64,000 nt of DNA from Halichondria panicea (lineage: Eukaryota > Porifera > Demospongiae > Suberitida > Halichondriidae), in contig NC_087382.1 in assembly GCF_963675165.1 (NCBI RefSeq), positions 3,697,963 to 3,761,962 of the forward strand, read 5' to 3'. The notes beneath the pieces were generated by a model. The model was not told the DNA's origin, did no database searches, and was given only the letters and a program-made list of their open reading frames with translations. Positions 26,306-64,000 of the stretch are shown here, piece after piece. A program made the translations under genes and the position numbers. Position 1 is the stretch's first letter; the number at the start of each line of letters is the position of its first letter.

Positions 26306-26494
26306 ATGGATGGACTAGATGACAACGTGTCCAACAACACAAACGTGTACTGTACAAATGTCAGTCAGATTCAAGTTGTGAGCATCTTTGGAATAATTAG
26401 CACACTATTGCTATTGGTTCCCTCACTTCTCTTTAAGCTGCACTGTAGTAGACATAAATTGTTTAATACAAGCTTCTCAGAAAATGAAGTCTAA
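26306..26494 (+). pseudogene. R0: truncated seven-helix family copy
   Basis: Starts MDGLDDNVSNNTNVYC and keeps the N-terminal domain and first helix (IFGIISTLLLLVPSLL), then diverts into unrelated sequence (CTGCACTGTAGTAGACATAA...) and stops. That same junction sequence recurs at 53765-53850, so it is part of a repeat. Only about one sixth of a full gene remains. Confidence 0.8.
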
Positions 26495-26593
26495 AACTGA
26501 CATACAACAATTCCTTAAACAACAATGAATATTTGAGTAAGTGGTTCTCATGCATATAGCAAGTCATGAATACACTCCTACACAATCTCCATT

Positions 26594-26603
26594 GCACATG
26601 TGC
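26594..26603. promoter_or_regulatory. Palindromic E-box-like motif ahead of R1
   Basis: GCACATGTGC, followed by AGGCTCGCCCC. The same ACACATGTGCAGGCTC block lies ahead of R5 (near 40353) and in the R16 upstream region (near 61975), about 150-230 bases before the gene starts. Confidence 0.4.
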
Positions 26604-26755
26604 AGGCTCGCCCCATTATACACAAGGGTATCTCTAATAATGCAGTAGCTATTTGAAGTGCTTTAGCAATAGAAGTAGCTGCATGCATAAAAGACAAGAC
26701 AGTTGAAGAGAACTATACTGAGTCCCAGTGATGTGGATATTATAAAACAAGGAAA

Positions 26756-27778
26756 ATGGATGGACTAGATTACTATGTGGACAACAGCACAAACTGTCTA
26801 AATATCAGTGATTCTGTGATAAAGTCATTCCAAACTTTCAGAATCTCTTGTATAATTGGCACACCGTTGCTATTGGTTCCCTCATTGATATTGCAGTTGT
26901 TTTTTATATACCGGTACAAGTCTACATTTCTACACCGTCAATTGCTCTACACAACTGTTGTTTTGATACTAATGAATGCTATCTACATTGTACACCTGAG
27001 CACTATTGATATCAGTTGTTCTTTGTCTTTCGCATATGTGACTAACGGTTTGAATCGGTACATATTTTATGTGGATATCATTCAAGTAACAATCATCCAT
27101 CTTCTACTCTTGTACAAGCTTTGCAAGCACATAGAAACAAGAACCATGCAACGTCTACGGACACTTTGCTGCAATATTCGTCCACGCCTGTGGCATGAAG
27201 TGATGATAGTGTGTATTCAACTTGGCCTCCCATTACCCGTACTAATAGTTAACATTGTGATGACATTAAAAACTCTATATTCAATTTTAAATGACATTAT
27301 AGATTCGGAAATGAGATATCTTTTTCTGCCTACACTGGCAGTCAACATACTACTAGGCCTGATATGCATAGTGTTGCTGGTGGTCTGGTTTTGTATGCTG
27401 ATAAAGAGAAAACTGTTGAAAAACAAAGCCAAATTTGTGTGCACTCAAATGGGTCACATATTAATCGTCTTAGTCGTCTTATTAATCGGGAACACAGCTT
27501 TTTTCTATAATTTAGATGATTCCTTTTTTGTATTTTTTGCCCTGCGAACATTTGCTACTGTATCGTTTAGTGTATACTTTCTCGTAAGCCTACCAGATTT
27601 ACAAAGGAGAGTCACTACAAAGGCCCAAGTTCCTGCAACTAATTGTCACACCAACCCGCCCTCTACTAGAGTCAGCCTGCCTACAGATACAGCCGAGCAT
27701 GCTCCAAACTTTCTAAGCCCAAGTACGGCAGGACCTTCAGAAGTGACTCCACTAGTGAACAATGAAACCTTATTGTAA
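26756..27778 (+). CDS. R1: intact orphan seven-helix membrane protein
   Basis: 340 residues, intronless. Layout as in the other copies: short N-terminus with NST and NIS glycosylation sites, then helices at about 26-48, 59-77, 92-120, 145-170, 190-215, 226-248 and 255-278, then a C-tail. Positive charge follows helix 1 (YRYKSTFLHR) and helix 3 (YKLCKHIETR), which puts the N-terminus outside. The C-tail is NPPSTRVSLPTDTAEHAPNF..., rich in Ser/Thr/Pro and ending NNETLL. There is no DRY, no NPxxY and no clear extracellular Cys pair, so it is not an ordinary class A receptor. A receptor role, perhaps chemosensory, is inferred from topology, single-exon structure and tandem expansion. It differs from the other copies by Cys in place of Arg in the tail (NCHTNPP). 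Confidence 0.85.
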   Translation: MDGLDYYVDNSTNCLNISDSVIKSFQTFRISCIIGTPLLLVPSLILQLFFIYRYKSTFLHRQLLYTTVVLILMNAIYIVHLSTIDISCSLSFAYVTNGLNRYIFYVDIIQVTIIHLLLLYKLCKHIETRTMQRLRTLCCNIRPRLWHEVMIVCIQLGLPLPVLIVNIVMTLKTLYSILNDIIDSEMRYLFLPTLAVNILLGLICIVLLVVWFCMLIKRKLLKNKAKFVCTQMGHILIVLVVLLIGNTAFFYNLDDSFFVFFALRTFATVSFSVYFLVSLPDLQRRVTTKAQVPATNCHTNPPSTRVSLPTDTAEHAPNFLSPSTAGPSEVTPLVNNETLL

Positions 27779-28184
27779 TCTAGCTAGTACAAGCACGTTA
27801 TATTTGTACATGCACACACACATGCACAATGTATGAGAACATAATCATTATTATACTCTAATGAAAGTAATATCAGAAACCAATGAGTATACTAGCTCTA
27901 TATAGCCTTAAACCTAGCTTGTACGACAATATCCCTCATATAGACAGCCAACTGCCCATAGTGGCAAGTCCAACACGTGAATACAATTAAAAATTGTGTT
28001 TGTCTGATAAATGCTATATAGGGTGACTTCCTTACAATCTTCCCTGTATACTCGGGTTCTCTTCTAATAAGCACAAGTCTTTGTCTAACACAATGCATAG
28101 AGTATAGCTACGTATAATTATTTTTAATCGGGAACATAGATTTGTGGTTTCAGGTTATACTGATGGTCTATAGTAGCAATACGA
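27779..28184. other. Array spacer
   Basis: Holds the R1 3' UTR (TGCACACACACATGCACAAT motif common to all copies) and diverged array DNA. No open gene seen. Confidence 0.5.
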
Positions 28185-28535
28185 ACAATTGCTCCAGTAT
28201 ATTTTGGTGTGTACATTAAGTCTATTTATTCTGAGAAAGAAAGTTCCATATACAAAGGCCCAAGTGTTTGCAACTAATCGCCACACCAACCCGCCCTCTA
28301 CTAGATAATACAAACAGCTGTTCCAGTATCTTTTGGTGTGTATATTCTCATAAGCATACCAAAATAATATGCGAAAGAAAGTCCGTACAAGAGCTTTTAC
28401 AAGCCACACCAACCCGCCCTCTACTAGAGTCAGCCTGCCTACAGATACAGCCGAACATGCTCCAAACTTTCTAAGTCCAAGTACTGCATGAGCATGCAGG
28501 ACCTTCAGAAGTGACTCCACTAATAAACTAAAAGT
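28185..28535 (+). pseudogene. Two fused receptor 3' remnants
   Basis: Two successive remnants of helix 7 plus C-tail: one to about 28316, ending at TCTACTAGA, the other 28305-28535. Both keep the almost unchanged tail sequence (CACACCAACCCGCCCTCTAC) but have no helices 1-6 and no open frame. Confidence 0.8.
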
Positions 28536-29239: not shown

Positions 29240-29440
29240 ACACAATAATCGTCTTAGTCTACGAAATCTATGAAAGAAATTCATGACAAAGGCCTATGTT
29301 CCTGCAACTAATCGCCACACCAACCCGCCCTCTACTAGAGTCAGCCTGCCTACAGATACAGCCGAACATGCTCCAAACTTTCTAAGCCCAAGCACGGCAG
29401 AACCTTCAGAAGTGACTCCATGCACTAATAAACTAAAAAC
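29240..29440 (+). pseudogene. Receptor tail-only remnant
   Basis: From a piece of helix 6-7 junction straight into the conserved tail (YVPATNRHTNPPSTRVSLPT...). Helices are absent. The tail frame is open but has lost its gene. Confidence 0.8.
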
Positions 29441-30158: not shown

Positions 30159-31027
30159 ATGGATGGGCAACTTTACAATGAGCCCAACAGCACAAACTAT
30201 CTTAATATCAATGATTCTGTGAAAAAGCAGTTCCAATTAGATATGAGGATCTTTGTTATAATCAGCATAGTGCTATTACGGTAGTTCCCACATTGATCTT
30301 GCAGCTCTTCTTTATCTGTTGGTACAAGTCTACATTTCTACACCGACAATTCCTCTACACAACAGTTTTTGTGCTATTATATTATATATCTTTGCAGCTG
30401 AGCACTCTTGATGTTGATTGTTCTTTCTTTCCTTTGTTAATGAATAGCTTGATTGGGTACATAATTATAAGTAGGTACATATCTTATGTGGAGATAATGC
30501 AAATAACAACAATCCATCTTCTCCTGTTGTACAAACTCTGCAAGCACATAGAAACAAGAATCACGCAACGGCTACGGGCACTGCGCTGCAATATTTGTCC
30601 ACACCTATGGCATGATGTGATGATAGTGTGTATTCAACTTGGTCTCCCATTACCCGTACTAATAGCTGACATTGTGATGACATTGAAAACTCGCTCAATC
30701 TACTTTATAGAAGAGGAACTTTATTATATTGTTAGACCTCTGCTGGCAGTCAATGCACTATTGGGCCTGACATGCACAGTGATACTGGTTAGTTGGTTTT
30801 GTATGCTGTGGAAAAGAAGATTGCTAAAGAATAAAGTGAAATTTGTGTGCACTCAAATGGGCCACATACTGTTCATCTTAGTCGTCTTATTAATTGGGAG
30901 CATACTTTTATTGCCTTTATATTATAGTTATGGTAATGCAGTAGTTTTTGTAATGCGAATGTTTCCTCCCATATCTTTTGGTGTGTACTTTATCGTAAGT
31001 CTACCAAGTATACGAAGGATCTTATGA
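30159..31027 (+). pseudogene. R2: seven-helix family pseudogene
   Basis: Starts MDGQLYNEPNSTNYLNI. About five extra bases around 30278-30283 shift the frame and create TAG at 30282-30284 within helix 1. The rest (helices 1-7) is open from about 30293, but the end breaks at GAAGGATCTTATGA, before any C-tail. The lost tail is replaced by the fragment at 31040-31335. Confidence 0.85.
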
Positions 31028-31039
31028 ATAAACCACTTT

Positions 31040-31335
31040 CACACGATACACAACTTATTTCTATTCAGCTATTCAGATTATGTTCATTTTTCTCTTGCAA
31101 TATTTTCTGCACTACGAACAATTGCTCTCGTATCTTTTGGTGTGTATGTTCTCATAAGCCTACCACATCTACAAAAGAAAGTCACTACAAAGGCCCAAGT
31201 TCCAACTAATCGCCACACCAACCCGCCCTCTACTAGAGTCAGCCTGCCTATAGATACAGCCGAACATGCTCCAAACTTTCTAAGTCCAAGCATGGCAGAA
31301 TCTTCAGAAGCGACTCCGCTAATACAATTAAACCC
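31040..31335 (+). pseudogene. Helix 6-7 plus tail fragment fused behind R2
   Basis: Resembles the R6/R8 version of helix 6-7 (TTATTTCTATTCAG...ACGAACAATTGCTC) followed by a complete C-tail, open from 31142. It makes R2 a chimera of two family members. Confidence 0.8.
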
Positions 31336-31773
31336 TTATTGTAAAAAGAAGATGTTATTATTTGTACATGCACACACATTACAAGACAGTTTATATGAAA
31401 GCACTATCACAAACCAATGAGTACTAGCTCTAGCCTTATTCAGAAACCATTCTTCATATCTAGATAAACAAACTGCCTATAGTGGTAATTATCTAAACAT
31501 GAATATAACTAGAGCACTAAAGTGCAAACCCTCGGCTGGTGACATGATTAAAAAGCAACCAGAAATATAATGCAGTGCATATAGTGACGTTGTTATCATG
31601 TATGACTTGCACAGCAACTCAGGAGCAATAAAACTAAACTCAAAACTAAAGTTGGAGTCTTAGACTAAGAGAAGTATGGCTCCTTCCAGGCTGGAGTACA
31701 TATAGGATCCAGAGTCAGTCAACAACCTTAGTCACACAATTCTACTTTTTCTTGACCGTATTCAATTGTTCCT

Positions 31774-37410: not shown

Positions 37411-38415
37411 ATGGATGGGCAACTTTACAATTTGTCCAACGGTACAAACTGCAGTTTAAATATCAGTGATTCAGAATATCTGATGATGCAGTACCAAGAT
37501 TTGAGTATAATCATCATAGTGCTATTGGTTCCCACATTGGTATTGCAGCTCTTCTTTATCTGTCGATACAAATCTACATTTCTACACCGTCAATTCCTCT
37601 ACACAACAATTTTTGTGCTACTATATTATATATTCTTCATTGTGTACTTGAGCACTATTGATGTTGGTTGCTTCTTTGCTTTATTTGTGAATAGTTTGGG
37701 ATAGTACTTGTTGTATGTGGAGATAATGCAAATAACAACCATCCATCTTCTCCTATTGTACAAACTCTGCAAGTATATGCAAACAAGAACCATGCAACGA
37801 CTACAGGCACTTTGCTGCAATATTCGTCCACGTCTGTGGCATGAAGTGATGATAGTGTGTATTCAACTCGGCCTCCCATTACCCATACTAATAGTTGAGA
37901 TTGTGATGATATTGAAAACAAATTCGATCTACTTTGTATACACGGTGCAATCCTACATTGAAATACCTCTGCTAGCAGTCAACGCACTATTGGGCCTGAT
38001 ATGCATAGTGTTACTGGTTAGTTGGTGTTATATGCTGTGCAAAAGAAGATTGCTAAAGAATAAAGTGAAATTTGTGTGCACGGAAATGGGCTACATATTG
38101 CTTGTCTTAGTCCTAGATTTAATTGGGAACATATGTTTGTTGCTTTTATTGTTGCCTTCAAGTTATGATTATAATATTGTAACTTCTGTAATGCGAACAT
38201 TTCCTCTCGTCTCTTTTGGTGTATATATTATCATAAGTATACGAAGTCTACAAAAGAAAGTCACTACAAAGGCCCAAGTTCCTGCAACTAATCGCCACAC
38301 CAACCCGCCCTCTACTAGAGTCAGCCTGCCTACAGATACAGCCGAACATGCTCCAAACTTTCTAAGCCCAAGTACGGCAGGACCTTCAGAAGTGACTCCA
38401 CTAATGAACTATTAA
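37411..38415 (+). pseudogene. R3: near-intact seven-helix copy with one stop codon
   Basis: 334 codons in one frame except for a TAG at 37702-37704 (residue 98, before helix 3). The close paralogue R14 has AGG (Arg) there. All seven helices and the tail (…EVTPLMNY) are otherwise undamaged. It could be a recently lost gene, a segregating allele or a base-call error. Confidence 0.85.
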
Positions 38416-39391: not shown

Positions 39392-39892
39392 ATGGATGGA
39401 CCAGATTACTATGACGACAACAACACATACTGTCCAAATATCACCACAGAATTTGTGATAAAGCATCTCCTCCCAGCGCTTAGGACTTCTAGTATAATCA
39501 GTATAGTGATATTGGTTCCTACATTGATCTTGCAGCTCTTCTTTATCTAGACCTATACCGGTACAAGTTTACATTTCTACACCGTCAATTCCTCTACACA
39601 ACAGTTGTAACAGTTGTCATACTAATGAATACTGTCTACATTATTTACCCGAGCACGGTTGATGTCGGCTGTCCTTTGTTTTACCTATTTGTGAATACAG
39701 TGAATCGATACTTGCTGTATGTGGAGTCACTGCAAATTATGACTATCCATCTTCTACTCTTGTACAAACTCTGCAAGCACATAGAAACAAGAATCATGCA
39801 ATCTTCTTTTTACAATAGGGGTTATAATTGTTTATTAGTGGAGTCACTTCTGAAGAAGAATCATGCAATTAATAACTACAGACACTTTGTTG
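39392..39892 (+). pseudogene. R4: seven-helix pseudogene, truncated
   Basis: Starts MDGPDYYDDNNTYCPNI. The frame breaks after helix 1 by an insertion (TCTAGACCTATACCGG). Within the loop after helix 3, 54 bases of an inverted receptor 3' end are inserted (39802-39855). The copy ends at a hAT-like terminus at 39893. Helices 4-7 and the tail are gone. Confidence 0.85.
39802..39855 (-). repeat. Inverted receptor 3' end inserted in R4
   Basis: The reverse complement reads CTTCAGAAGTGACTCCACTA followed by the usual stop and 3' UTR start, that is, the end of the C-tail coding sequence in antisense. The same insertion is in R15 (61433-61486). Confidence 0.85.
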
Positions 39893-40583: not shown

Positions 40584-41609
40584 ATGGATGGGCTAGTTTA
40601 CAATGAGTCCAACAATACAAACTGCTTGAATTTCAGTGAAAATCAGATAAAAGAGTATCTAGGTCTCAGGATCTTCGGTATAATTGGCATACCGTTGCTA
40701 TTGGTTCCCTCATTGATCTTGCAGCTCTTCTTTATCTACCGGTACAAGTCTACACTTTTACATCGTCAATTTCTCTACACAACAGTTGTTGTCATACTAC
40801 TGAATGTAATCTACATTATATACTCGAGCACTGTTGATGTCGGTTGTCCTTTGTTTCAACGAATTGTGAATAGTGTGAATCGGTATTTGTTCTATGTTGA
40901 GATGATGCAAATGACAACCATCCATCTTCTACTCTTGTACAAACTCTGCAAGCACATGGAAACAAGAACCATGCAACGACTACAGACACTTTGCTGCAAT
41001 ATTCGTCCACGCCTGTGGCATGATGTGATGATAGTGTGTATTCAATTTGGCCTCCCATACCCTTACTAATAGCTGAAGTAGTGCATGGTGATGATAAAAA
41101 CATTTTCAATGTTGGAATTCCTCATCGATGTGGAAATGAACTGCTTTATTAGACCCCTGTGGGTATTCAACATACTACTGGGCCTGATATGCATAGTGTT
41201 GCTGGTGCTCTGGGGCTATAGATTGTGGAAGATTAATTTGTTAAAAAGTAAAGTGAAATTTGTGTGCACTCAAATGGGCCACATACTGTTCATTTTAGTC
41301 GTCTATATAATCTGGAACTTAATATGTTTGTTTTCATTCTTTCCTTATAATGGTATAGTACTTTCTGTTATGCGAACTTTTGCTCCAGTCTCCTTTGGTG
41401 TATATATTGTCATGAGTATACCAAAACTCCCCCAAAAAGTCACTACAGCAAAGGCCGAAGTGTTTGCAACTAATCGCCATACCAACCCGCCCTCTACTAG
41501 AGTCAGCCTGCCTACAGATACAGCCGAACATGCTCCAAACTTTCTAAGCCCAAGCACATCAGAACCTTCAGAAGTGACTCCGCTAGTGAACAATGAAACC
41601 TTATTGTAA
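40584..41609 (+). pseudogene. R5: seven-helix copy with two frameshifts
   Basis: Helices 1-4 open from MDGLVYNESNNTNCLNF. One base is missing near 41058 (CCATACCC against CCATTACCC in related copies) and CATG is added at about 41084-41087. Together these restore the frame, but a stop (TAA, 41067-41069) lies between. Helices 5-7 and the tail (…VNNETLL) are intact. Confidence 0.85.
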
Positions 41610-42095: not shown

Positions 42096-43096
42096 ATGGA
42101 TGGACTAGATTATTATGAGGACAACAACACGAACTGTCTAAATATCAGCGAAAATGTGATAAATCAGTTTCCAGTTCGTAAGATTTCTAGTATAATCAGC
42201 ATACCGTTGCTATTGGTTCCCACATTGATCTTGCAGCTTTTCTTTATCTACCGATACAAGTCTACATTTCTACACCGTCAATTCCTCTACACAACAGTTG
42301 TTGTCCTACTAGTGAATGTAATCAACATCGTATACCCGAGCAGTCTTAATCACTGTCCTTTGTCTTTACTTATTGTGTATAGATTGAATTGGTACTTTTA
42401 CTATGTGGAAATGCTGCAAATAACAACGATCCATCTTCTACTCTTGTACAAGCTCTGTAAGCACATGCAAACTAAAACCACGCAACGACTACAGACACTT
42501 TGCTGCAATATTTGTCCACGCCTGTGGAATGATGTGATGATAGTGTGTACTCAACTTGGTCTCCCATTACCTGTACTAATAGTTGACATTGTGGTGATAT
42601 TGAAAACAAATTCAGACGCCTTTACAATCAGGGAATATAATTATTTTTTTTACCTCTGGTGGCAGTCAATACGCTATTAGGCCTGGTATGCATAGTCTTG
42701 CTGGTGGTCTGGTTTTGTATGTTGGTAAAGAAAAAATTGTTGAAAAGCAGAGCAAAATTTGTGTGCACTCAAATGGGTCACATATTAATCGTCTTAGTCG
42801 TCTTATTAATCGTGAACACAGCTTATTTCTATTCAAATTATGTTAATTTTTCTCTTGCAGTATTTACTGCAGTACGAACAATTGCTCCGGTATCTTTTGG
42901 TGTGTATATTCTCATAAGTCTACCAAATCTCCAAAGGAAAACCACTACAAAGGCCCAAGTGTTTGCAACTAATCGCCACACCAACCCGCCCTCTACTAGA
43001 GTCAGCCTGCCTACAGATACAGCCGAACATGCTCCAAACTTTCTAAGCCCAAGCACAGCAGAACCTTCAGAAGTGACTCTACTAGTTAACGATTAA
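42096..43096 (+). pseudogene. R6: seven-helix copy with one homopolymer frameshift
   Basis: Open from MDGLDYYEDNNTNCLNI through helix 4. The frame changes in the T8 run at 42644-42651 and continues in the next frame through helices 5-7 and a full tail to 43096. A single-base T-run error would make this an intact gene of about 333 residues. Closest relative is R17, which ends before this point. Confidence 0.8.
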
Positions 43097-48227: not shown

Positions 48228-49244
48228 ATGGACAAACAAGTTTACTATGAGGACAACACAAACTGTCAAAAATCAGTGAATTTATGATAAAGTAGATCTA
48301 GTTAGTATAATTAACATACCGTTGCTATGGTTCCCATATTTATCTTACAGTTCTTCTTTATATATACAGGTACATTTCTACACCGTCAATTCCTCTATAC
48401 AACAGTTGTTGTCATACTATTCACCATAATATACATTGTAAGCCAAAGCACTGTTGATGTTGGTTGTCTATTTGTGACTAGTTTGAGTTAATTCCATGGT
48501 ACATAATTTATGTTGAGATACTGCAAATAACAACCATCCATCTTCTACTCTTGACAAACTCTAAGCACATAGAAACAAGAATCATGCAACGCCGACTACA
48601 GACACTTTGCTGTAATATTCGCTTATGGCATGATGTGATGATAGTGTGTATTCAACTTGGAGTGTGTATTCAACTTGGTCTCCCATTACCCTTACTAATA
48701 GCTGAGATTGTGGTGATATTCAACTGATCTACTTTATATATACAAGGTGGAGTGCGATTACATTGAAATATTTCTGCTGGCATGCAGTCAACATACTATT
48801 GGGCCTGACATGCACGGTGTTACTGGTGCTCTGGTTTTGTATGCTGTGGAAAAGAAGATTGCTAAAGAATAAAGTGAAATTTGTGTGCACTGAAATGGGC
48901 CACATATACTACTCGTCTATATACTAGTCGTACTATTAATTGGGAGCATACTTTGTTGCGTTATTTGTTGCCTTCAAAATATAGTGATTATAGTCTTGCA
49001 GTAACTTCTGCATGTGATACAAAAATTTCTTCCATTATCTTTTGGTGTGTATATTCTCATAAGCATACCAAGTCTCCAAAGGAGAGTCACTACAAGAGCT
49101 TTAATTTGCAACTAATCGCCACACCAACCCGCCCTCTACTAGAGTCAGCTTGCCTACAGATACAGCCGAACATGCTCCAAACTTTCTAAGCTCAAGCACA
49201 TCAGAACCTTCAGAAGTAACTCCACTAGTGAACATTGTTAATTA
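48228..49244 (+). pseudogene. R9: heavily decayed seven-helix pseudogene
   Basis: All segments are recognisable (N-terminus MDKQVYYEDN, helices, tail) but many short deletions and insertions break the frame. A short direct duplication of GTGTGTATTCAACTTGG lies at 48647-48678. Oldest-looking member of the array. Confidence 0.85.
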
Positions 49245-49837: not shown

Positions 49838-50821
49838 ATGGATGGACTAGATTACCATGAGGACAACGATACAAACTGTCTAAATATCAGTGATTCTGTG
49901 ATAAAGCAAAACATTATGATTTCTAGTATAATCATCATAGTGCTATTGGTTCCCACATTGATCTTGCAGCTCTTCTTTATCTGTCGGTACAAGTCTACGT
50001 TTCTACACCGTCAATTCCTCTACACAACAGTTTTTGTGCTCCTATTTAATATAATAATCATTGTAAGCCAAAGCACGATTAATATTGGTTGTCCTTCCTT
50101 TTATTTATTAGTGACTAGTTTGACTAGGTACATAACTTATGTCGAGCTACTGCAAATAATAACAATCCATCTTTTACTCTTGTACAAACTCTGCAAGCAC
50201 ATGCAAACAAGAGCCATGCAACGACTACAGGCACTTTGCTGCAATATTCGTCCACGCCTGTGGCATGATGTGATGATAGTGTGTATTCAACTCGGCCTCC
50301 CATTACCCTTGCTAATAGCTGACATTGTGGTGATATTGAAAACACATTCAATCGAGGAGGAACTTTATTATATTGTTAACTTTATTCTTAAACCGATGCT
50401 GGCAGTCAACGCACTATTGGGCCTGATATGCACAGTGTTACTGGTGCTCTGGTGTTGTATGTTGTGGAAAAAAAGATTGCTAAAGAATAAACTGAAATTT
50501 GTGTGCACTCAAATGGGCCACATATTACTTGTCTTAGTCGTCTTATTAATTGGAAGCATACTTTTGTTACCTTCAATTTATAGTTATGGTTTTGAAGTAA
50601 CTTCTGTAATGCGAACATTTCTTCCCGTATCTTTTGGTGTGTATATTCTCATAAGCCTACCAAGTCTACAAAGGAAAGTCGCTACAAGAGCTTTTAATCG
50701 CCACACCAACCCGCCCTCTACTAGAGTCAGCCTGCCTACAGATACAGCCGAACATGCTCCAAACTTTCTAAGCCCAAGCACAGCAGAATCTTCAGAAGTG
50801 ACTTCACTAATAAACAATTAA
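49838..50821 (+). CDS. R10: intact orphan seven-helix membrane protein
   Basis: 327 residues from the MDGLDYHEDNDTNCLNI start; an in-frame ATG-like codon at 49823 is less likely because all copies start at MDG. Same helix layout as R7, with WCCMLWKKRLLKNKLKF between helices 5 and 6. The segment between the last helix and the tail is shorter (VATRAFNRHTNPP). Glycosylation sites NDT and NIS at the N-terminus. Ends EVTSLINN. Confidence 0.85.
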   Translation: MDGLDYHEDNDTNCLNISDSVIKQNIMISSIIIIVLLVPTLILQLFFICRYKSTFLHRQFLYTTVFVLLFNIIIIVSQSTINIGCPSFYLLVTSLTRYITYVELLQIITIHLLLLYKLCKHMQTRAMQRLQALCCNIRPRLWHDVMIVCIQLGLPLPLLIADIVVILKTHSIEEELYYIVNFILKPMLAVNALLGLICTVLLVLWCCMLWKKRLLKNKLKFVCTQMGHILLVLVVLLIGSILLLPSIYSYGFEVTSVMRTFLPVSFGVYILISLPSLQRKVATRAFNRHTNPPSTRVSLPTDTAEHAPNFLSPSTAESSEVTSLINN

Positions 50822-51418: not shown

Positions 51419-52420
51419 ATGGATGGACTATAGATTACCATGAGGACGACAATACAAACTGTCTAAATATCAGTGATTCTGTGTTCCTAAATATTATAGG
51501 ATCTTTGGTATAATCAGCATATACCATTGCTATTGGTTCCAACATTGATTCTGCAAGCTCTTCTTTATCTACCGGTACAAGTCTACATTTCTACACCGTC
51601 AATTCCTCTACACAACGATTGTTGTGATTATATTATTTACAAACTACGCTGTATACCCGAGCAGTCTCAATGACTGTCCTTTGTCTTTCCTACTTGTAAA
51701 TAGTTTGAATGTGTAGCTACGTATTGTATGTGGATATCATTCAAATAACAACCATCCGTCTTCTACTCTTGTACAAATTCTGCAAGCACATGGAAACAAG
51801 AACCACGCAATGACTACAGACACTTTGCTGCAATATTCGTTCACGCCTATGGATGAAGTGATGATAGTGTGTATTCAACTCGGGGCCTCCCATTACTCAT
51901 ACTAATAGTTGAGATTGTGGTGATATTGAAAACACATTCAGTTTCTTTTAGATATGTGGAAAGATATTATTTTTTTCTACCTACGCTGGCAGTGAACATA
52001 CTATTAGGCCTGATATGCATAGTGTTGCTGATGGTCTGGTTTTGTATGTTGATAAAGAGAAAATTGTTGAAGAATAAAATAAAATTTGTGTGCACCCAAA
52101 TTAGTCACATCTTAGTCGTCTTATTAATTGGGAACACAGCTTTTTTCTATCCACTAAATTATTATTATCTTGTAATTTTTTCTGCACTGCGTGCAATTGC
52201 TCCATTGTCATTTGGTGTGTATATTGTCATAAGCATATACCAAATCTACAAAGGAGAGTCACTACAAAGGCCCAAGTTCCTGCAACTAATCGCCACACCA
52301 ACCCGCCCTCTACTAGAGTCAGCCTGCCTACAGATACAGCCGAACATGCTCCAAACTTTCTAAGCCCAAGCACAGCAGAACCTTCAGAAGTGACTCTATA
52401 TACTGTTGAACGATTAAATT
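51419..52420 (+). pseudogene. R11: seven-helix pseudogene
   Basis: A two-base change puts TAG right after MDGL; further frameshifts fall near helix 1, after helix 2 and in the 3' part. Helices 4-7 are open from 51869, with the tail out of frame. Overall still well preserved. Confidence 0.85.
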
Positions 52421-53374
52421 ACTGCTATAAAAAACACTGTATTTTATAAATGTTACGTTATATATGAAAATTGTACATCTGGAATGAATACTGTATGCAT
52501 ACAGTTCCAGATGTACAATTTTCATTCAAGATTTTTATGCATTCAACAGTATTAATTCAAGATTTCATTAAAGATGCACTATTCATTCAGATTACAAAAT
52601 TATGCATGCATACAATCATTCAAGATATGCATGCATATACAGTCATTAAAACACAACATTTAAGAGATGTCATTTGCTTCAAAACTCGGAAGTCGGCAAT
52701 GGAACCCACTTAACCTCTTGTTAATTTTCGTTTGGAACTATGCCCAATTAAACATTCTTGTATTTTTAATCAGTGACCTTGAACCTAAAATAATTTCATT
52801 TTCGTATGTACCACACTTACGTCACCACTAATTGATAACAGCTGTATGATACATGTACATATATAGACAGTTTTTAATTAAAGTTTTTTCTTAGTTTATT
52901 TTCCTCGACTTTTTGACCCTCTCGAACCCTGGGGTAGCGGAGGATACATGTATAATTATGCAGAGATAATCATAATTATAATGCCGTGGTGCATATCCTT
53001 CTCTAAGGTGTGCATGCATGGTCATAGATAAACAAAAGAGAGGCAGAGCGATAGTGAGAAAGCAAAGGAGGATCGTCAGGGTCAAAAGTATATAATAAGC
53101 TGCTTCCGGAGGACTTTAATTAAATCCCACTCAGCTAGCTCCGGACATACTAGAAGTGTAGATGAGTGGATCAATTAAAGTCCTCAGAGCAGCTTTGCAC
53201 ATCTTGAATGAATACTAAGGCATCTTAAATGCAAAAAAATCTTGAACTGATGAAAATTGTATATACATCTTGAATGAATACTGAGCTATGCATCTTAAAT
53301 GAATGTATTTTAATCTGAATGAAAATGTAACATTTGAATTTTTAAACAAAACGGCCCACCATACTAAAGAGTTC
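52421..53374. other. Spacer with palindromes
   Basis: Repeated ATTCAAGAT/ATCTTGAAT motifs, a strong palindrome (52465-52524) and a shorter inverted repeat at 53109-53185 (GAGGACTTTAATT against AATTAAAGTCCTC). The DNA differs from other array spacers, so it may be an inserted element. No gene seen. Confidence 0.5.
52465..52524. repeat. 60-bp near-perfect palindrome
   Basis: Arms TGAAAATTGTACATCTGGAA (52465-52484) and its complement (52505-52524); the centre contains a second palindrome, CTGTATGCATACAG (52491-52504). Confidence 0.9.
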
Positions 53375-53474
53375 GAGAGTCAGCCTGCCTACAGATACAG
53401 CCAAACATGCTCCAAACTTTCTAAGCCCAAGTACAGCAGAACCTTCAGAAGTGACTCTACTGGTGAACGATTAA
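53375..53474 (+). pseudogene. Receptor tail-only remnant
   Basis: Begins abruptly at GAGTCAGCCTGCCTACAG and runs to the stop codon (…LVND-type end, TAA 53472-53474). The preceding DNA is unrelated to the helices. Confidence 0.85.
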
Positions 53475-54969: not shown

Positions 54970-55971
54970 ATGGATGGACTATATATAGATTACTATGAGG
55001 ACAACAACACAAACTGTCCAAATATAAGTGATTCTGTTGTAAAGGACTTCAGGACCTTTAGTATAATTGGTATAGTGCTATTGGTTCCCTCATTGATCTT
55101 GCAGCTCTTTTTTATCTACCGGTACAAGTCTACATTTCTACACCGTCAATTCCTCTACACAACAATTGTAGTGCTACTAATATATATAACGAACATTGTA
55201 CACCCGAGCACTGTTGATGTTGGTTGTCCTTTTTTTCCTTTATTTGTGACTAGTTTGGTTGGGTACATAATTTATGTGGAGATATTTCAAATAACAACCA
55301 TCCATTTTCTACTCTTGTACAAATTCTGCAAGCACATAGAAACAAGAACCACGCAACGACTACAGACACTTTGCAATATTCGTCCACGCCCACGGCATGA
55401 TTTGATGATAGTGTGTATTCAACTTGGTCTCCCATTACCCATACTAATAGCTGAGATTGTGATGATATTGAAAACACATATGAATTTAGTCAACTTTATT
55501 GACATGGACATTATTCTACCTGTTGTGGCAGTCAACGTACTATTAGGCCTGATATGCATAGTGTTGCTGATGGTCTGGTTTGGTATACTGATAAAGAGAA
55601 AATTGTTGAAGAATAAAGCAAAATTTGTGTGCACTCAAATTAGTCACATATTAATCGTGTTAGTCGTTTTATTAATCGGGAATGCAAGTTATTTTTATTC
55701 CCATTTTTATTTTAATGATGCTTTTTTAGTAGAGTTTGCAATGCAAATAGTTGCTATTGTATCTTTTGGTGTGTATATTCTCATAAGCATACCAAGCCTA
55801 CAAAGGAGAGTCACTACAAAGGCCCAAGTTCCTGCAACTAATCGCCACACCAACCCGCCCTCTACTAGAGTCAGCCTGCCTACAGATACAGCCGAACATG
55901 CTCCAAACTTTCTAAGCCCAAGCACAGCAGAACCATCAGAAGTGACTCCGCTAATAAACATTGTTAATTAA
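54970..55971 (+). CDS. R12: intact orphan seven-helix membrane protein
   Basis: 333 residues from MDGLYIDYYEDNNTNCPNI; the frame extends 28 codons upstream, but only through the conserved non-coding leader. Seven helices and tail as in R7. One residue is lost in the loop after helix 3 (TLCNIRPRPRHDL against TLCCNIRPRLWHDV), which also replaces the usual RLW by RPR. The loop between helices 6 and 7 is longer (YFYSHFYFNDAFL). Ends INIVN. Confidence 0.85.
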   Translation: MDGLYIDYYEDNNTNCPNISDSVVKDFRTFSIIGIVLLVPSLILQLFFIYRYKSTFLHRQFLYTTIVVLLIYITNIVHPSTVDVGCPFFPLFVTSLVGYIIYVEIFQITTIHFLLLYKFCKHIETRTTQRLQTLCNIRPRPRHDLMIVCIQLGLPLPILIAEIVMILKTHMNLVNFIDMDIILPVVAVNVLLGLICIVLLMVWFGILIKRKLLKNKAKFVCTQISHILIVLVVLLIGNASYFYSHFYFNDAFLVEFAMQIVAIVSFGVYILISIPSLQRRVTTKAQVPATNRHTNPPSTRVSLPTDTAEHAPNFLSPSTAEPSEVTPLINIVN

Positions 55972-56340: not shown

Positions 56341-56351
56341 TATACTCAAAT

Positions 56352-56764: not shown

Positions 56765-56840
56765 TGCACCAAACACTTTCTAAGCCCAAGCACAACAGAA
56801 TTTTCAGAAATGACTCCACTAATGAACAATGAAACCTTAT
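56765..56840 (+). pseudogene. Degenerate receptor tail remnant
   Basis: CACTTTCTAAGCCCAAGCAC and the following codons to the stop correspond to the end of the C-tail; frame and start are lost. Confidence 0.7.
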
Positions 56841-57111
56841 TGTTATCTAGCTAGTACAAGCATGTCATATTTGTATATGCACACACACAATGAGAACACA
56901 CTCTAATCAGTAATGAAAGTAATATCAAAAACCAGAGAGCTATAGAGTTCCAGCATATTCAGAAACTAGATGGTATGACAACTAATTCGTATACATAGAA
57001 TCCAAAACGTGGATACAATTATAAGTTGTGTTCACAATAAGGGATGGTTCACACATGTAATCTTTAATACACATGCTTCCCTCCTAATAAGCAAGTCTTT
57101 GTCTACAAGTT

Positions 57112-57388: not shown

Positions 57389-58395
57389 ATGGAAATGAAT
57401 GGACTAAAAGATTACTACGAGGACAACAAAACATCCTGTTTCAACATTAGTGAAATTGTGATAAACGAGTATCAAAATGTGATGATCTTTAGTGTAATTA
57501 GCATACTGTTGCTATTGGTTCCCACATTGATCTTGCAGCTCTTATTTGTCTACCGATACAAATCCACATTCTTACACCGTCAATTCCTTTATGCAACAAT
57601 TGTTGTGATATTATTAGGTATAATCTACATTTTGTACCCAAGCAGTTTCAATATTGGCTGTCCTTTGTTTTACATAATCGTGAATAGTTCGAACCGGTAT
57701 TTGTTCTTTGTTGAAATGCTGCAAATAACAACCATCCATCTTCTACTCTTGTACAAGTTCTGCAAGCACATGGAAACAAGAATCATGCAACGAATACAGA
57801 CACTTTGTTGCAATATTCGTCCAAGTCTGTGGCATGAAGTGATGATAGTGTGTATTCAACTTGGTCTACCATTACCCTTAATTATAGATGAGTTTGTGGT
57901 GAGACAATCAATGTACTTTAAAAGAATGGAACAAAATTACATTCTTATACCAGTGCTGATAGCCAACATACTACTAGACCTGGTATGCATAGTGCTGTTG
58001 TTGGTCTGGGTGTATAGGTTGTGGAAAAGAAAATTGTTGAAAAGTAAAGCGAAATTTGTGTGCACTCTAATTATTCACATGCACACTGTTAATCTTAGTC
58101 GTCTTTTTAATTGGGAACATAATTTTTTTGTTTTCAAATTTTGAAAATGCTTTTGTAGTATATTTTGCACTACGAACAATTGCTCCCGTATCTTTTGGTG
58201 TGTATGTTCTCATAAGCCTACCACATCTACAAAGGAAAGTCACTACAAAGGCCCAAGTTTTTGCAACTAATCGCCACATCAACCCGCCCTCTACTATAGA
58301 GTCAGCCTGCCTACAGATACAGCCGAACATGCTCCAAACTTTCTAAGCCCAAGCACAGCAGAATCTTCAGAAGTGACTCCACTAATAAACAATTA
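57389..58395 (+). pseudogene. R13: seven-helix copy with two indels
   Basis: Start MEMNGLKDYYEDNKTSCFNI. Open through helix 5; four extra bases near 58078-58085 shift the frame in helix 6, and two extra bases near 58296 shift it again in the tail. The loop between helices 4 and 5 is unusual (RQSMYFKRMEQNYILI). Confidence 0.85.
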
Positions 58396-58852
58396 AACCC
58401 TTATTGTAAAAAGAAGATGTTATTATTTGTACATGCACACACATTACAAGACAGTTTATATGAAAGTACTATCACAAACCAATGAGTACTAGCTCTAGCC
58501 TTATTCAGAAACCCTCGTTCATATCTAGATAGACAAACTACCTATAGAAGTAATTACCTAAACATGAATACAATTATAAATTGTGTTCAATACAAGGGAA
58601 GATGTGCATGTCCAGCAACTACACACAATATCCACTACCACACACACACACACTAAGCATGCAAGCGTACAGTCTTTGTCTAACCATGCAAGAGCTCATG
58701 AAAAGTAACTTCGTGCAGCGTATGCTCGAGGCTTACGTTTCGTATAGTAATTGCCGGTGAATTCTTATAAATTGAAAGCCACCAAATAGGGTTGTATTGT
58801 ATAACACGTATTACAGGGATTCAACCCACTTTAGTTTACAAATTCCCATTAT

Positions 58853-58862: not shown

Positions 58863-59028
58863 CAATGCAGTCATACCCACGACGCTTCTATTTAAGGCTC
58901 CTGGTCTAACACAAAGCTAATAATAATAGTATAGCTTATTAGAAGTATTTTAGCAATAGTTGCAGTCAAGACAGTTTAGCAATGGACCAAGTCAAGTCAA
59001 GAGAGGTACTGATTCAGCAATAAGGAAA

Positions 59029-60036
59029 ATGGATGGGCAACTTTACAATTTGTCCAACGGTACACACTGCAGTTTAAATATCAGTGATTCAGAATATCTG
59101 ATGACGCAGGAGCAAGCTGTGAGGATCCTCAGTATAATCATCATACTGTTGCTATTGTTTCCCACATTGGTATTGCAGCTCATCTTTATCTGTCGGTACA
59201 AATCTACATTTCTACACCGTCAATTCCTCTACATAACAATTTTTGTGCTACTATTTTTCATTGTGTACCTGATCACTGTTGATGTTGGTTGCTTCTTTGC
59301 TTTATTTGTGGGTAGTTTGGGAAGGTACTTGTTTTGTGTGGAGATAATGCAAATAACAACTATCCATCTTCTCCTATTGTACAAACTCTGCAAGTATATG
59401 CAAACAAGAACCATGCAACAGCTACAGGCACTTTGTTGCAATATTCGTCCCCGTCTGTGACATGAAGTGATGATAGTGTGTATTCAACTCGGTCTCCCAT
59501 TACCCGTACTAATAGTTGAGATTGTGGTGATATTGAAAACAAATTCAATCTACTTTGTATACAATGTGCAACTCTACATTGAAATATCTCTGCTAGCAGT
59601 CAACACACCAATGGGCCTGATATGCACAGTGTTACTGGTTAGTTGGTGTTGTATGCTGTGGAAAAGAAGATTGCTAAAGAATAAAGTGAAATTTGTGTGC
59701 ACTGAAATGGGCCACATATTGCTTGTCTTAGTCGTAGATTTAATTGGGAACATACTTTTGTTGCTTTTATTGGTGCCTTTAAGTTATGATTATAATATTG
59801 TAGTTTCTGTAATAAGAACATTTCCTCCCGTCTCTTTTGGTATATATATTATCGTAAATATACGAAGTCTGCGAAAGAAAGTCACTACAAAGGCCCAAGT
59901 TCCTGCAACTAATCGCCACACCAACCCGCCCTCTACTAGAGTCAGCCTGCCTACAGATACAGCCGAACATGCTCTAAACTTTCTAAGCCCAAGTACGGCA
60001 GGACCTTCAGAAGTGACTCCACTAGTGAACAATTAA
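59029..60036 (+). pseudogene. R14: near-intact seven-helix copy with one stop codon
   Basis: 335 codons in one frame except TGA at 59458-59460 (residue 144, just before helix 4), where the other copies have TGG (Trp of RLWHE). Duplicate of R3, which has a different single stop. Otherwise complete, ending EVTPLVNN. Confidence 0.85.
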
Positions 60037-61021: not shown

Positions 61022-61523
61022 ATGGATGGACCAGATTACTATGACGACAACAACACATACTGTCCAAATATCACCACAGAATTTGTGATGAAGCATCTCC
61101 TCCCAGCGCTTAGGACTTCTAGTATAATCAGTATAGTGATATTGGTTCCTACATTGTCTTGCAGCTCTTCTTTATCTAGACCTATACCGGTACAAGTTTA
61201 CATTTCTACACCGTCAATTCCTCTACACAACAGTTGTAACAGTTGTCATACTAATAAATATACTGTCTACATTATTTACCCGAGCACGGTTGATGTCGGC
61301 TGTCCTTTGTTTTACCTATTTGTGAATACAGTGAATCGATACTTGCTGTATGTGGAGTCACTGCAAATTATGACTATCCATCTTCTACTCTTGTACAAAC
61401 TCTGCAAGCACATAGAAACAAGAATCATGCAATCTTCTTTTTACAATAGGGGTTATAATTGTTTATTAGTGGAGTCACTTCTGAAGAAGAATCATGCAAT
61501 TAATAACTACAGACACTTTGTTG
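61022..61523 (+). pseudogene. R15: duplicate of R4, truncated
   Basis: Same inverted 54-base insert (61433-61486) and same hAT-like break at 61524 as R4. It has its own one-base loss near 61157, so the frame after helix 1 differs from R4. Confidence 0.85.
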
Positions 61524-61890
61524 CAGGGGCGGATCCAGGAATTTTGAAAAGGGGGGCAGTTTAAAGAAATGTTTACTAGGTCAACAGTTGGCCGATTTAA
61601 CTTGGATGGGTATAAGAAAAAATCCCCAGAAGACCATGCAGCTATACAATGACAAACAATAACATACTTTGTGTACTGATGCATGCATATTTAATAACAA
61701 TCATGTCAGTTGTATGATCTTCACTATGTAGTATTGTATTCAATAGCCAAAGGCAATTAATAGAGCACATTACCAGGTGCTCTATTAGAAATACACCACA
61801 TAGCAACAATAAGCAAATACTGTAACACTTAACTTAAGTGATGGGGTCTAAATATAGAATAGAACTGGCGTACAGCAGTCAGCAATTTCA
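61524..61890. mobile_element. hAT-like element end, duplicate copy
   Basis: CAGGGGCGGATCCAGGAATT, the counterpart of 39893. No right end found. Confidence 0.45.
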
Positions 61891-62158
61891 ATTAGTTATA
61901 CGAATATTTTAGTAAGTGGTTCTCATGCACGTATAGCAAGTCATGAATACACCACTCCTACACAATCTCCATTACACATGTGCAGGCTCGCCCCATTATA
62001 AACAAGCACAATGCAGTATAGTTATTTGAAGTGCTTTAGCAATAGTTATAATTATACGTAGCTGCATCCACGGGCAGTTTAGCACTGATAGATCAAGACC
62101 AATAGAACTATATATATATACATATATATATATAGTTTCATGCATGCAAAGACAAGAC

Positions 62159-63048
62159 AGCTCTTCTTTATCTACCGATACAAGTCTAAACTTTTACATC
62201 GTCAATTCCTCTACACAACAGTTGTTGTCATACTACTGAATGTAATCTACATTATATACCCGAGCACTGTTGATGTCGGTTGTCCTTTCTTTCAACAAAT
62301 TGTAACTAGTTTAATTTGAATCGGTATTTGTTCTATGTGGAGATGATGCAAATGACAACCATCCATCTTCTACTCTTGTACAAACTCTGCAAGCACATGG
62401 AAACAAGAACCATGCAATGACTACAGACACTTTGCTGTAATATTCGTCCACGCTTATGGCATGATGTGATGATTGTATATGCATTCAATTTGGCCTCCCA
62501 TTACCGTTACTAATAGCTGAAGTAGTGGTGATGATAAAAACATTTTCAATGTTGGAATTCCTCATCGATGTGGAAATGAACTGCTTTATTAGACCCCTGT
62601 GGGTATTCAACATACTACTGGGCCTGATATGCATAGTGTTGCTGGTGCTCTGGGGCTATAGATTGTGGAAGATTAATTTGTTAAAAAGTAAAGTGAAATT
62701 TGTGTGCACTCAAATGGGCCACATACTGTTCGTTTTAGTCGTCTATATAATCTGGAACTTAATATGTTTGTTTTCATTCTTTCCTTATAATGGTATAGTA
62801 CTTTCTGTTATGCGAACTTTTGCTCCAGTCTCCTTTGGTGTATATATTGTCATGAGTATACCAAAACTCCCCCAAAAAGTCACTACAGCAAAGGCCGAAG
62901 TGTTTGCAACTAATCGCCATACCAACCCGCCCTCTACTAGAGTCAGCCTGCCTACAGATACAGCCGAACATGCTCCAAACTTTCTAAGCCCAAGCACATC
63001 AGAACCTTGAGAAGTGACTCCGCTAGTGAACAATGAAACCTTATTGTA
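62159..63048 (+). pseudogene. R16: duplicate of R5, lacking its start
   Basis: Begins inside the end of helix 1 (CTCTTCTTTATCTACCG) directly after upstream leader sequence; the N-terminus is deleted. Extra bases after helix 2 and at the loop after helix 3 break the frame. Helices 5-7 and the tail are open (from 62525) up to a TGA at 63008-63010 that replaces TCA. Confidence 0.85.
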
Positions 63049-63590
63049 ATCTTGTACAAGCACGTTATATTTGTATACATATACATGCACACACAATACT
63101 ATAATGAAGTTATTGTCGCAAACCAATGTGCGTACTATAGCTCTACAGCCTTGTTAAAAAACTAGCTGTATATATATATACAGAGTTGAGAACCTGGCCA
63201 AGGTTGCCAGAAGTGCTTGAGGGCACAAAATACTGAAGTGAGTCATATAAGTCACATTACAAGCTTGTGTTCTACACTGGGGTATCAATTACATAATTAT
63301 TGTAAGATCAGACAACCTCTCATATTGTACGTGTTCACTATATTCATGCATGGGAGCACTGCATGCATGATGTTCACACAATCCTTCAATGTATACACAG
63401 GCTTGCCCCATATATAAGCATACAGTCTTTGTCTAACACAATGCAGGTACTGTAACATCAGAAGTGCTTTAGCAATATAGAACTAGCTATACATGTACCA
63501 AAGTCAAGCCTGACAGTTTAGTACTATATCTAGTAGACCAAGTCAAATCAAAAATCGAGGCACTGACTCAAGAATCTGACTACAAGGGAA
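63049..63590. promoter_or_regulatory. Upstream region of R17
   Basis: Contains CCCCATATATAAGC (near 63407) and the conserved leader, as ahead of R6, plus an insert of about 140 bases near 63175-63315 not present ahead of R6. Confidence 0.45.
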
Positions 63591-64000
63591 ATGGATGGAC
63601 TAGATTATTATGAGGACAACAACACGAACTGTCTAAATATCAGCGAAAATGTGATAAATCAATTTCCAGTTCGTAAGATTTCTAGTATAATCAGCATACC
63701 ATTGCTATTGGTTCCCACATTGATCTTGCAGCTTTTCTTTATCTACCAATACAAGTCTACATTTCTACACCGTCAATTCCTCTACACAACAGTTGTTGTC
63801 CTACTACTGAATGTAATCAACATCGTATACCCGAGCAGTCTTAATCACTGTCCTTTGTCTTTACTTATTGTGTATAGATTGAATTGGTACTTTTACTATG
63901 TGGAAATGCTGCAAATAGCAACGATCCACCTTCTACTCTTGTACAAGCTCTGTAAGCACATGCAAACTAAAACCACGCAACGACTACAGACACTTTGCTG
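63591..64000 (+). CDS. R17: seven-helix protein, cut by window end
   Basis: Open for all 136 codons visible, from MDGLDYYEDNNTNCLNI to the loop after helix 3. Nearly the same as R6, with a few replacements (YQYKST for YRYKST, LQIATIH for LQITTIH). Whether it is intact beyond 64000 cannot be seen. Confidence 0.8.
   Translation, partial: MDGLDYYEDNNTNCLNISENVINQFPVRKISSIISIPLLLVPTLILQLFFIYQYKSTFLHRQFLYTTVVVLLLNVINIVYPSSLNHCPLSLLIVYRLNWYFYYVEMLQIATIHLLLLYKLCKHMQTKTTQRLQTLC

What the first reader, a model, noticed from the sequence alone, without database searches (positions are those of the whole stretch)
26306..64000. Tandem array of an apparently undescribed intronless seven-helix family
Eighteen copies on one strand in 38 kb, four intact, all single-exon. 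The hydrophobicity pattern fits seven helices with the N-terminus outside, but DRY, NPxxY and the usual disulfide are absent, and the loop after helix 3 plus helix 4 (CCNIRPRLWHDVMIVCIQLG) is a signature I do not know from any named family. Intronless, lineage-specific, tandem and rich in pseudogenes is the pattern of chemoreceptor clusters. A receptor role is inference.
Basis: partly seen in the sequence, partly recalled or inferred. Interest (0 to 1): 0.8.

Follow-up and report, generated by a model that had tools for sequence, protein, structure and literature searches.

The report
Uncatalogued seven-helix receptor-like gene family
This stretch of what is probably a sponge genome is part of a large, fast-evolving family of single-exon seven-helix membrane proteins that look and evolve like chemical-sensing receptors but match no known receptor family by sequence, and most of which carry the same conserved tail inside the cell.

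Summary
The window contains about 20 copies or fragments of one single-exon gene, all on the + strand: four intact, plus a fifth crossing the window end. The array runs 50 kb further: 47 copies/fragments and 12 intact ORFs in 87 kb. It grew by block duplications, 94.6-98.5% identical. It is one branch of a superfamily on at least eight contigs; I read 44 intact ORFs of >=300 aa.

No Pfam GPCR family matches any of 23 members scanned. Tail-less bodies match one another by profile, but not class A, class B or cAMP-type receptors of the same genome. Topology looks N-out/C-in; the 50 structural rows listed for the better model are GPCR-type, but that model is middling (pLDDT 64; Foldseek E 0.23).

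New: (1) a ~35-residue C-tail, 89% identical between two subfamilies whose bodies are 20% identical, ending in an acidic dileucine-like motif; (2) extracellular loops evolve faster than intracellular ones, clear in two of three subfamilies; (3) a predicted N-terminus-to-helix-3 disulfide.

Best reading: GPCR-fold, chemoreceptor-like. Ligand, coupling, expression and phylogenetic range untested.

The parts
26306..26440 (+). N-terminal scrap of a family copy (about 45 codons)
   Evidence: blastp of stop-free segments, E 2e-6
26756..27775 (+). intact family gene 1 (340 aa, single exon)
   Evidence: open frame; tblastn
28140..28528 (+). 3'-end pseudogene fragment, frame broken
29253..29429 (+). 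3'-end fragment
30159..31327 (+). full-length pseudogene, two frames
37411..38409 (+). full-length pseudogene, one in-frame stop
39392..39801 (+). 5'-part pseudogene
40584..41606 (+). full-length pseudogene, three in-frame stops
42096..43093 (+). full-length pseudogene, frameshift
44262..44336 (+). 25-codon fragment
44725..45717 (+). intact family gene 2 (331 aa); reference copy for the structure models
46918..47960 (+). full-length pseudogene
48228..49233 (+). full-length pseudogene
49838..50818 (+). intact family gene 3 (327 aa)
51430..53471 (+). broken copy and a separate tail fragment, joined by the chaining rule
54970..55968 (+). intact family gene 4 (333 aa from the conserved Met; an upstream in-frame Met gives 361 aa)
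56774..56842 (+). tail fragment
57395..58405 (+). pseudogene; a 251-aa open frame remains at 57389-58141
59029..60033 (+). full-length pseudogene, one TGA
61022..61432 (+). 5'-part pseudogene
62158..63046 (+). pseudogene, three frames
63591..64000 (+). first 410 bases of a fifth intact gene (333 aa), which ends 589 bases beyond the window
45610..45717 (+). conserved C-tail of gene 2 (PPSTRVSLPTDTAEHAPNFLSPST...EVTPLINN)

Best explanation
The array encodes a branch of an uncatalogued seven-helix, GPCR-fold receptor superfamily used like a chemoreceptor repertoire. The N-terminus and the loops between helices face outside and vary between copies to sense different cues; a disulfide between the N-terminal cysteine and the cysteine at the top of helix 3 caps the extracellular face (inferred). 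The basic intracellular loops and a near-invariant C-tail stay constant, because the receptors hand their signal and their trafficking to the same cell machinery. The tail probably serves endocytic or endolysosomal sorting through its terminal acidic dileucine-like motif (E-x-[T/S]-x-L-[LIVM]), with Ser/Thr sites upstream for phosphorylation-dependent desensitisation. New receptors arise by tandem and block duplication of intronless genes, and most decay. Shown by computation: copies, duplication, charge pattern, tail conservation, loop-rate contrast. Inferred: receptor function, ligand sensing, disulfide, tail partner, G-protein coupling.
For: Array and decay: 47 copies/fragments, 12 intact, one strand; block duplications of 5.7 kb at 98.1% and 6.7 kb at 98.5%, other receptor-bearing blocks 94.6-97.9%. 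Topology: basic excess in the loops after helices 1, 3 and 5; N-terminus acidic, with a glycosylation sequon in 31 of 37. Fold: helical elements that read as seven membrane helices in both window-only AF2 models (pLDDT 51 and 64); of the 50 VIA-align rows listed for the better model, 48 are named GPCRs, one is a designed GPCR-like fold and one is titled only 'Receptor', Z 14.0-11.2. One superfamily: tail-less bodies match by hhalign (W-T 94%, W-S 98%, W-U 98%, T-U 99.9%, S-V 99.4%; three reversed controls below 1%). Loops: omega outside 1.26 (0.86-1.82) against inside 0.29 (0.17-0.51) in 12 W copies; same order in 10 S copies (0.48 against 0.17). Tail: W against T body 20% and tail 89% identical; W-T tail consensus omega 0.037; E.[TS].L[LIVM] in 31 of 33 tailed members of A3.
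Against: No Pfam GPCR model matches any of 23 members even at E <= 10. Profile comparison with 20 class A, class B and cAMP-type receptors of the same genome reaches at most 5.1% probability, against 1.9% for reversed controls. Foldseek gives no match at E <= 0.001 (best 0.23), and non-GPCR rows appear from rank 27; in the VIA list of the poorer model 2 of 50 rows are not GPCRs. The Z values lie close to what unrelated helical bundles can score. In the T subfamily the outside/inside contrast is weaker (1.00 against 0.63; 9.3% of bootstraps reverse it), and in S only the third outer loop and the N-terminus exceed 1. The tail is less alike in W2 and L014 (64% and 68% to W) and missing in 4 of 37 members (U group). 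The strict [DE]xxxL[LI] form is present in only 21 of 37. No expression or ligand data.
Confidence: 0.6

Rival explanations
1. Highly diverged adhesion/secretin-type (class B) GPCRs that lost the N-terminal GAIN/GPS part, an already named kind in sponges ('adhesion-like' receptors without long N-termini).
For: Profile A1 matched ADGRG5 over the whole 7TM, positions 27-308, E 0.018; profile A4 matched the same chain in register at helices 1-3, E 6.1. Class B receptors are frequent among the structural rows. Krishnan et al. 2014 (PMC4302439, passages read) describe sponge adhesion-like receptors without long N-termini.
Against: The hit disappears with the larger alignment A3; A5 gives no receptor row. 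hhalign against 8 class B proteins of the same genome gives 0.15-5.0% over all family groups. No listed 7tm_2 match lies in the family clusters (the listing is cut at E 7.8e-6, so weaker ones were not seen). The members have about 26-residue N-termini in the single exon, no GPS.
Confidence: 0.25
2. A non-receptor seven-helix family (transporter, scramblase, enzyme or trafficking protein) in a fast birth-and-death array, for example under host-microbe conflict.
For: No sequence tie to any receptor class. The tail looks like an endolysosomal sorting signal, which many non-receptor membrane proteins carry (recalled).
Against: No conserved charged or catalytic residue pattern inside the helices: the four invariant columns of A3 are R57, Y61, C84 and W205, at loops or helix ends by the map. 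The structural rows of the better model are GPCR-type. Varied outer loops with conserved inner loops are what a sensor would show.
Confidence: 0.12
3. Insect-type GR/OR/GRL ligand-gated channel relatives.
For: Seven helices, tandem expansion, no GPCR motifs.
Against: Charge pattern gives N-out, opposite to GR/OR (recalled). No such Pfam match in 23 proteins.
Confidence: 0.03
4. Tail conservation reflects recent gene conversion or exchange of the 3' end between clusters, not function.
For: Fourfold sites of the W and T tail consensus agree at 12 of 21 against 0.28 expected (P 0.004), whereas bodies agree at 0.32, near chance. Tail synonymous divergence is low within W (pS 0.08-0.10 against mostly 0.2-0.4).
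Against: Between the W and T consensus the tail has dS 0.89 and dN 0.033, so protein-level constraint is strong whatever the exchange history. 3' flanks of W copies are only 62% alike.
Confidence: 0.3

Closest known systems
Vertebrate bitter-taste receptors TAS2R (class T)
   Same: Intronless, pseudogene-rich 7TM chemoreceptors (recalled; intronless T2Rs also in PMC11526382, passages); among the top structural rows, Z 13.9-11.6, tied with other GPCR classes; best Foldseek row, E 0.23
   Different: No sequence match in Pfam; different motifs; here a conserved C-tail and an N-term/TM3 cysteine pair
Sponge Rhodopsin clusters AqRho-A to E (Krishnan et al. 2014, PMC4302439)
   Same: 7TM, neighbouring groups of 2-8 genes, sponge-specific (passages read)
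   Different: Those were found through Pfam GPCR models; none of 23 members of this family matches one. None of the 33 rows of 7tm_1 in this genome lies in its clusters
Adhesion/secretin class B GPCRs (7tm_2)
   Same: Weak full-length profile match to ADGRG5, E 0.018 with one alignment only
   Different: No GPS/GAIN seen, short N-terminus; hhalign at most 5.0%
Dictyostelium-type cAMP receptors (Dicty_CAR), present in sponges
   Same: Short-N-terminus 7TM (recalled); 12 matches in this genome
   Different: None of the 12 lies in the family clusters; hhalign below 1% against three of them
GPRch3 and other new holozoan GPCR families (PMC12716839)
   Same: 7TM with short termini; GPRch3 is said to have sponge homologs (passages read)
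   Different: Sequences could not be compared here; identity not excluded
Insect GR/OR and GRL proteins
   Same: Seven helices, expanded arrays (recalled)
   Different: Opposite predicted topology; no Pfam match

Membership tests
GPCR superfamily | seven helices, N outside, C inside | tested here: met
   Prediction only. Positive-inside pattern and N-terminal sequons in 31 of 37. The models show eight and nine helical elements, read as seven membrane helices with breaks; the hydropathy segments were likewise grouped by me.
GPCR superfamily | GPCR 7TM fold | tested here: inconclusive
   VIA rows GPCR-type, Z 14.0-11.2, one of 50 titled only 'Receptor', but pLDDT 63.8 and Foldseek E 0.23 at best
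GPCR superfamily | G-protein or arrestin coupling | not testable with these tools
   needs assays
Rhodopsin (class A) | 7tm_1 profile match | tested here: not met
   Pfam: none of 23; none of the 33 rows of PF00001 in the genome lies in the clusters
Rhodopsin (class A) | DRY and NPxxY motifs | tested here: not met
   0 of 12 intact W copies
Rhodopsin (class A) | TM3-ECL2 disulfide | tested here: not met
   TM3-top Cys in 37 of 37, but no Cys in ECL2 in 8 of 9 W, 11 of 12 T, 4 of 4 U and the one W2; the S and V groups have one or two there, so for them it stays open
Adhesion/Secretin (class B) | 7tm_2 profile match | tested here: not met
   Pfam none of 23; hhalign at most 5.0%. Against this: A1 profile to ADGRG5 E 0.018, not reproduced with A3
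Adhesion (class B2) | GAIN/GPS extracellular region | tested here: not met
   N-terminus about 26 aa in a single-exon ORF; an upstream exon was not excluded
Dicty_CAR | PF05462 match | tested here: not met
   0 of 23 by hmmscan; none of 12 genome rows in clusters
Insect GR/OR/GRL | N inside topology | tested here: not met
   (prediction)
Chemoreceptor gene cluster (works like) | tandem, intronless, pseudogene-rich, birth-and-death | tested here: met
Chemoreceptor gene cluster (works like) | ligand-facing side evolves faster than the cytoplasmic side | tested here: met
   EC/IC contrast in W and S; same direction but not significant in T. Not a formal test of positive selection
Chemoreceptor gene cluster (works like) | restricted sensory-cell expression | not testable with these tools
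   no RNA-seq
Chemoreceptor gene cluster (works like) | lineage-specific expansion | not testable with these tools
   no other animal genome on hand; no relative confirmed in the prokaryote and viral collections

The most novel reading that the evidence does not exclude
A categorically separate class of animal chemoreceptors: a sponge 7TM class with GPCR fold but no detectable descent from class A, class B or cAMP-type receptors (classes C and F were tested only through Pfam). With 44 intact single-exon ORFs read it outnumbers the class-A matches found here (19 over cut-off), and all but one small branch share one C-tail that routes diverse receptors into a single trafficking and desensitisation pathway.
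Probability: 0.25. Interest if true: 0.85.

Novelty: new variant of a known kind. Interest (0 to 1): 0.6.

Why it matters
How animals without neurons or noses sense chemicals, including their microbes, is open. GPCR surveys of sponges that start from Pfam models, such as Krishnan et al. 2014, would probably not see this family (inference: none of 23 members matches). If it is a receptor family, it gives a ready list of candidate sponge chemoreceptors, and the shared tail gives an antibody or bait handle that could pull out most of the class and its common partner.

Tried and rejected
GPCR class assignment by ADGRG5 profile hit: E 0.018 with A1, lost with A3, E 6.1 with A4, absent with A5; kept only as a rival. 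One row of A1 (L016:1808-2854) was given with its last codons cut off, so it lacks its tail end; A3 uses only the other L016 gene. Search for relatives outside the genome: genome contigs (96 pattern stretches) and viral contigs (25), none confirmed; these hold prokaryotes and viruses, so they say little. phmmer of one S member against the PDB: no match. First AF2 model (8 window sequences): pLDDT 51, Foldseek best E 0.52; 2 of its 50 VIA rows are not GPCRs. The tail as simple 3'-end gene conversion: flanks only 62% alike; not settled. Literature: five searches listed no paper whose title or abstract start describes a Pfam-negative 7TM family in sponges; only passages of PMC4302439, PMC12716839 and PMC11526382 were read; preprints and most subscription papers are not held. 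OR/GR-type folds were not among the rows; that does not exclude them. 7tm_3 and Frizzled were not searched in the genome, only through hmmscan of the 23 proteins.

Rows dropped before counts: A3 holds 37 of the 44 ORFs read (left out: L002:6345, L003:1451, the 63591 copy, L010, L012:2369, L034, L016:1727). A 305-aa open frame with a frameshifted tail (L003:8036-8950) and a 206-aa one on C1 (L022) are not among the 44. One search used 20 of these genes. The W rate test used 12 of 12 W copies (without the single W2 copy); T used 12 of 15 (the C5 genes L009, L020, L035 left out), S 10 of 11 (L014 left out; three taken from an inner Met). Signs against are in the Against line.
Full report
What is there. 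The window lies on contig C6 of a 131.5-Mb assembly with 39 contigs. Tblastn with four intact copies found 21 merged places at 26756-63998, all on the + strand. A chaining rule over 119 kb of contiguous sequence (the window plus L001-L006) gave 47 copies or fragments from 26756 to 114000 in window coordinates, 12 of them intact: 11 of one subfamily, called W here, and one divergent neighbour, W2. Twenty start inside the window. None of 1105 HSPs is on the minus strand. Four intact genes lie wholly in the window and a fifth crosses its end.

How the array was built. Self-comparison shows block duplications: 37613-43253 with 74115-79758 at 98.1%, 44149-50821 with 79750-86447 at 98.5%, and 36942-40508 with 58572-62118 at 94.6%, plus others up to 97.9%. 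The closest intact pair has dS 0.017. This is birth and death by tandem and block duplication, with decay of most copies.

A superfamily, not just an array. A protein search of the genome gave 136 matches, falling into the window cluster and into clusters elsewhere, where the longest matches are 26-35% identical. Further searches with divergent members added C7, C1 and more of a C6:3.30-3.33 Mb group. I read 44 intact ORFs of 300 aa or more from the fetched DNA: W 12 (one on C5), W2 1, T 15 (C10, C5, C16, C17), S 11 (C6:2.85 Mb, C6:5.05 Mb, C14, C15), U 4 (C6:3.30-3.33 Mb), V 1 (C7). All are single open frames. With tails cut off, subfamily profiles match each other by hhalign: W-T 94%, W-S 98%, W-U 98%, T-S 98.8%, T-U 99.9%, S-U 98%, S-V 99.4%. 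W-V is weak (18%), and W2 was not tested this way. Three reversed-profile controls are below 1%. So the bodies are homologous.

Not a known receptor family by sequence. hmmscan against Pfam gave no GPCR family for any of 23 proteins at E <= 10. In the same genome 7tm_1 has 33 rows (19 over cut-off), Dicty_CAR 12 rows and 7tm_2 182 matches. None of the listed ones lies in a family cluster; the 7tm_2 list is cut at E 7.8e-6. hhalign of the family groups against 9 class A, 8 class B and 3 cAMP-type proteins of this genome gave at most 5.1%, while reversed controls reached 1.9%. The same method linked class A with class B at 49% and class B with cAMP-type at 83%, though class A with cAMP-type only at 2.9%. 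A profile of 26 members matched ADGRG5 across the 7TM at E 0.018, but the 37-member profile did not. A remote tie to class B is possible, not shown.

Topology and fold. Mean charges over 37 members put the basic loops after helices 1, 3 and 5 (K+R 3.8, 5.6 and 6.1 against D+E 0.0, 1.6 and 1.1); the N-terminus is acidic (1.3 against 4.1). The hydropathy trace of that call breaks into 15 short segments, which I grouped into seven helices. 31 of 37 have an N-glycosylation sequon in the N-terminus. This gives N outside and C inside. AlphaFold with window sequences only gave nine helical elements at pLDDT 51.3 (8 sequences) and eight at 63.8 (22 sequences, tail left out); I read both as seven membrane helices with a broken fourth, and in the first a short extra helix after the seventh. 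VIA-align of the better model: 414 of 501 chains preselected by Foldseek reach Z 8 or more. Of the 50 listed rows, Z 14.0 (yeast Ste2) to 11.2, 48 are named GPCRs of several classes, one is a designed GPCR-like fold and one is titled only 'Receptor'. For the poorer model 48 of 50 rows are GPCRs, Z 9.4-7.0. Foldseek's best is TAS2R4 at E 0.23, none at 0.001; the first 26 rows are GPCRs, then unrelated proteins mix in. The tool warns that helical bundles can reach about Z 13 by common arrangement, so I count the fold as likely, not proven.

Cysteines. 36 of 37 members have at least one cysteine in the N-terminus and 37 of 37 have exactly one at the ECL1/helix-3 top. ECL2 has none in 8 of 9 W and 11 of 12 T members; nine of ten S members and V have two there. 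The region borders are mine. I infer an N-terminus to helix-3 disulfide in place of the usual one.

Outer loops change, inner loops do not. Nei-Gojobori rates with codon bootstrap in 12 intact W genes: extracellular loops omega 1.26 (0.86-1.82), intracellular loops 0.29 (0.17-0.51); 0 of 2000 bootstraps reversed the order. S (10 genes): 0.48 against 0.17, 0.4% reversed. T (12 genes): 1.00 against 0.63, 9.3% reversed, not significant. The W N-terminus is not fast (0.39). Pairs are not independent and gene conversion is likely, so this is a pattern and not a formal test of positive selection.

The tail. The last ~35 residues, PPSTRVSLPTDTAxHAPNFLSPSTxEPSEVTPLIN, are 89% identical between W and T while the bodies are 20% identical; W2 and L014 have less similar tails (64% and 68% to W). 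The tail consensus of W against T has dS 0.89, dN 0.033, omega 0.037. The tail search found 98 places; by my comparison of coordinates all lie within or near family clusters except one unexamined place on C14. 33 of 37 members carry the first island; the four that do not are the U group. 31 of these 33 end in E.[TS].L[LIVM], against 4% for [DE]xxxL[LIVM] in shuffled ends; the strict [DE]xxxL[LI] form is in 21 of 37. That motif resembles the acidic dileucine sorting signal read by AP complexes (recalled). Fourfold sites of the two consensus tails agree at 12 of 21 against 0.28 expected, so the tail may also have been exchanged more recently than the bodies. The 3' flanks of W copies are not alike enough to make that obvious (62%).

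Interpretation. The evidence fits a chemoreceptor-like repertoire: intronless, tandem, decaying, varied outside, constant inside. PMC11526382 (passages read) lists tandem clusters, missing introns and many pseudogenes as typical of chemoreceptor families. Receptor function, ligands, coupling and expression are untested. Membership in any named GPCR class fails the tests I could run; 'works like a chemoreceptor' stands at about 0.6.

Known before? Krishnan et al. 2014 (PMC4302439, passages including part of the abstract) described sponge-specific Rhodopsin clusters found by Pfam search. PMC12716839 (passages) names new holozoan GPCR families, and I could not compare sequences with them; GPRch3 in particular is said to have sponge homologs and cannot be excluded. 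Five library searches listed nothing that by title or abstract start describes this family; preprints and most subscription papers are not held.

Noticed in passing
window 7456-8991 (ORF 6616-9036, +): About 12.7 near-identical 120-bp coding repeats (40-aa unit) inside a long open frame; 97% matches.
   Followed up: no
window 31492-37026: A repeat block inside the receptor array: ~740-bp units (92-93% over the long matches), followed by a 62-bp satellite with a GC-rich core.
   Followed up: no
window 18434-19531 (+), 19902-21350 and 21645-22955 (-): Single-exon ADP-ribosylglycohydrolase and two neighbouring glycosyltransferase family 92 genes beside the array.
   Followed up: partly
tail codons of W against T genes (e.g. 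window 45610-45717): Synonymous sites of the tail are less diverged than those of the body, between subfamilies and within W; the CCNIRP/helix-4 stretch also has low synonymous divergence within W. Conversion or a nucleotide-level constraint, unexplained.
   Followed up: partly
L005:8957-10000 (+), C6:3810919-3811962: Last gene of the array (W2) is only about 30% identical to the W reference overall, with a recognisable tail; it sits directly downstream of an intact W gene.
   Followed up: partly
C6:3295133-3336000 (L019, L023, L024, L036): Related 7TM group without the conserved tail.
   Followed up: partly
window 57113-57250: Perfect 41-bp tandem repeat, 3.4 copies.
   Followed up: no
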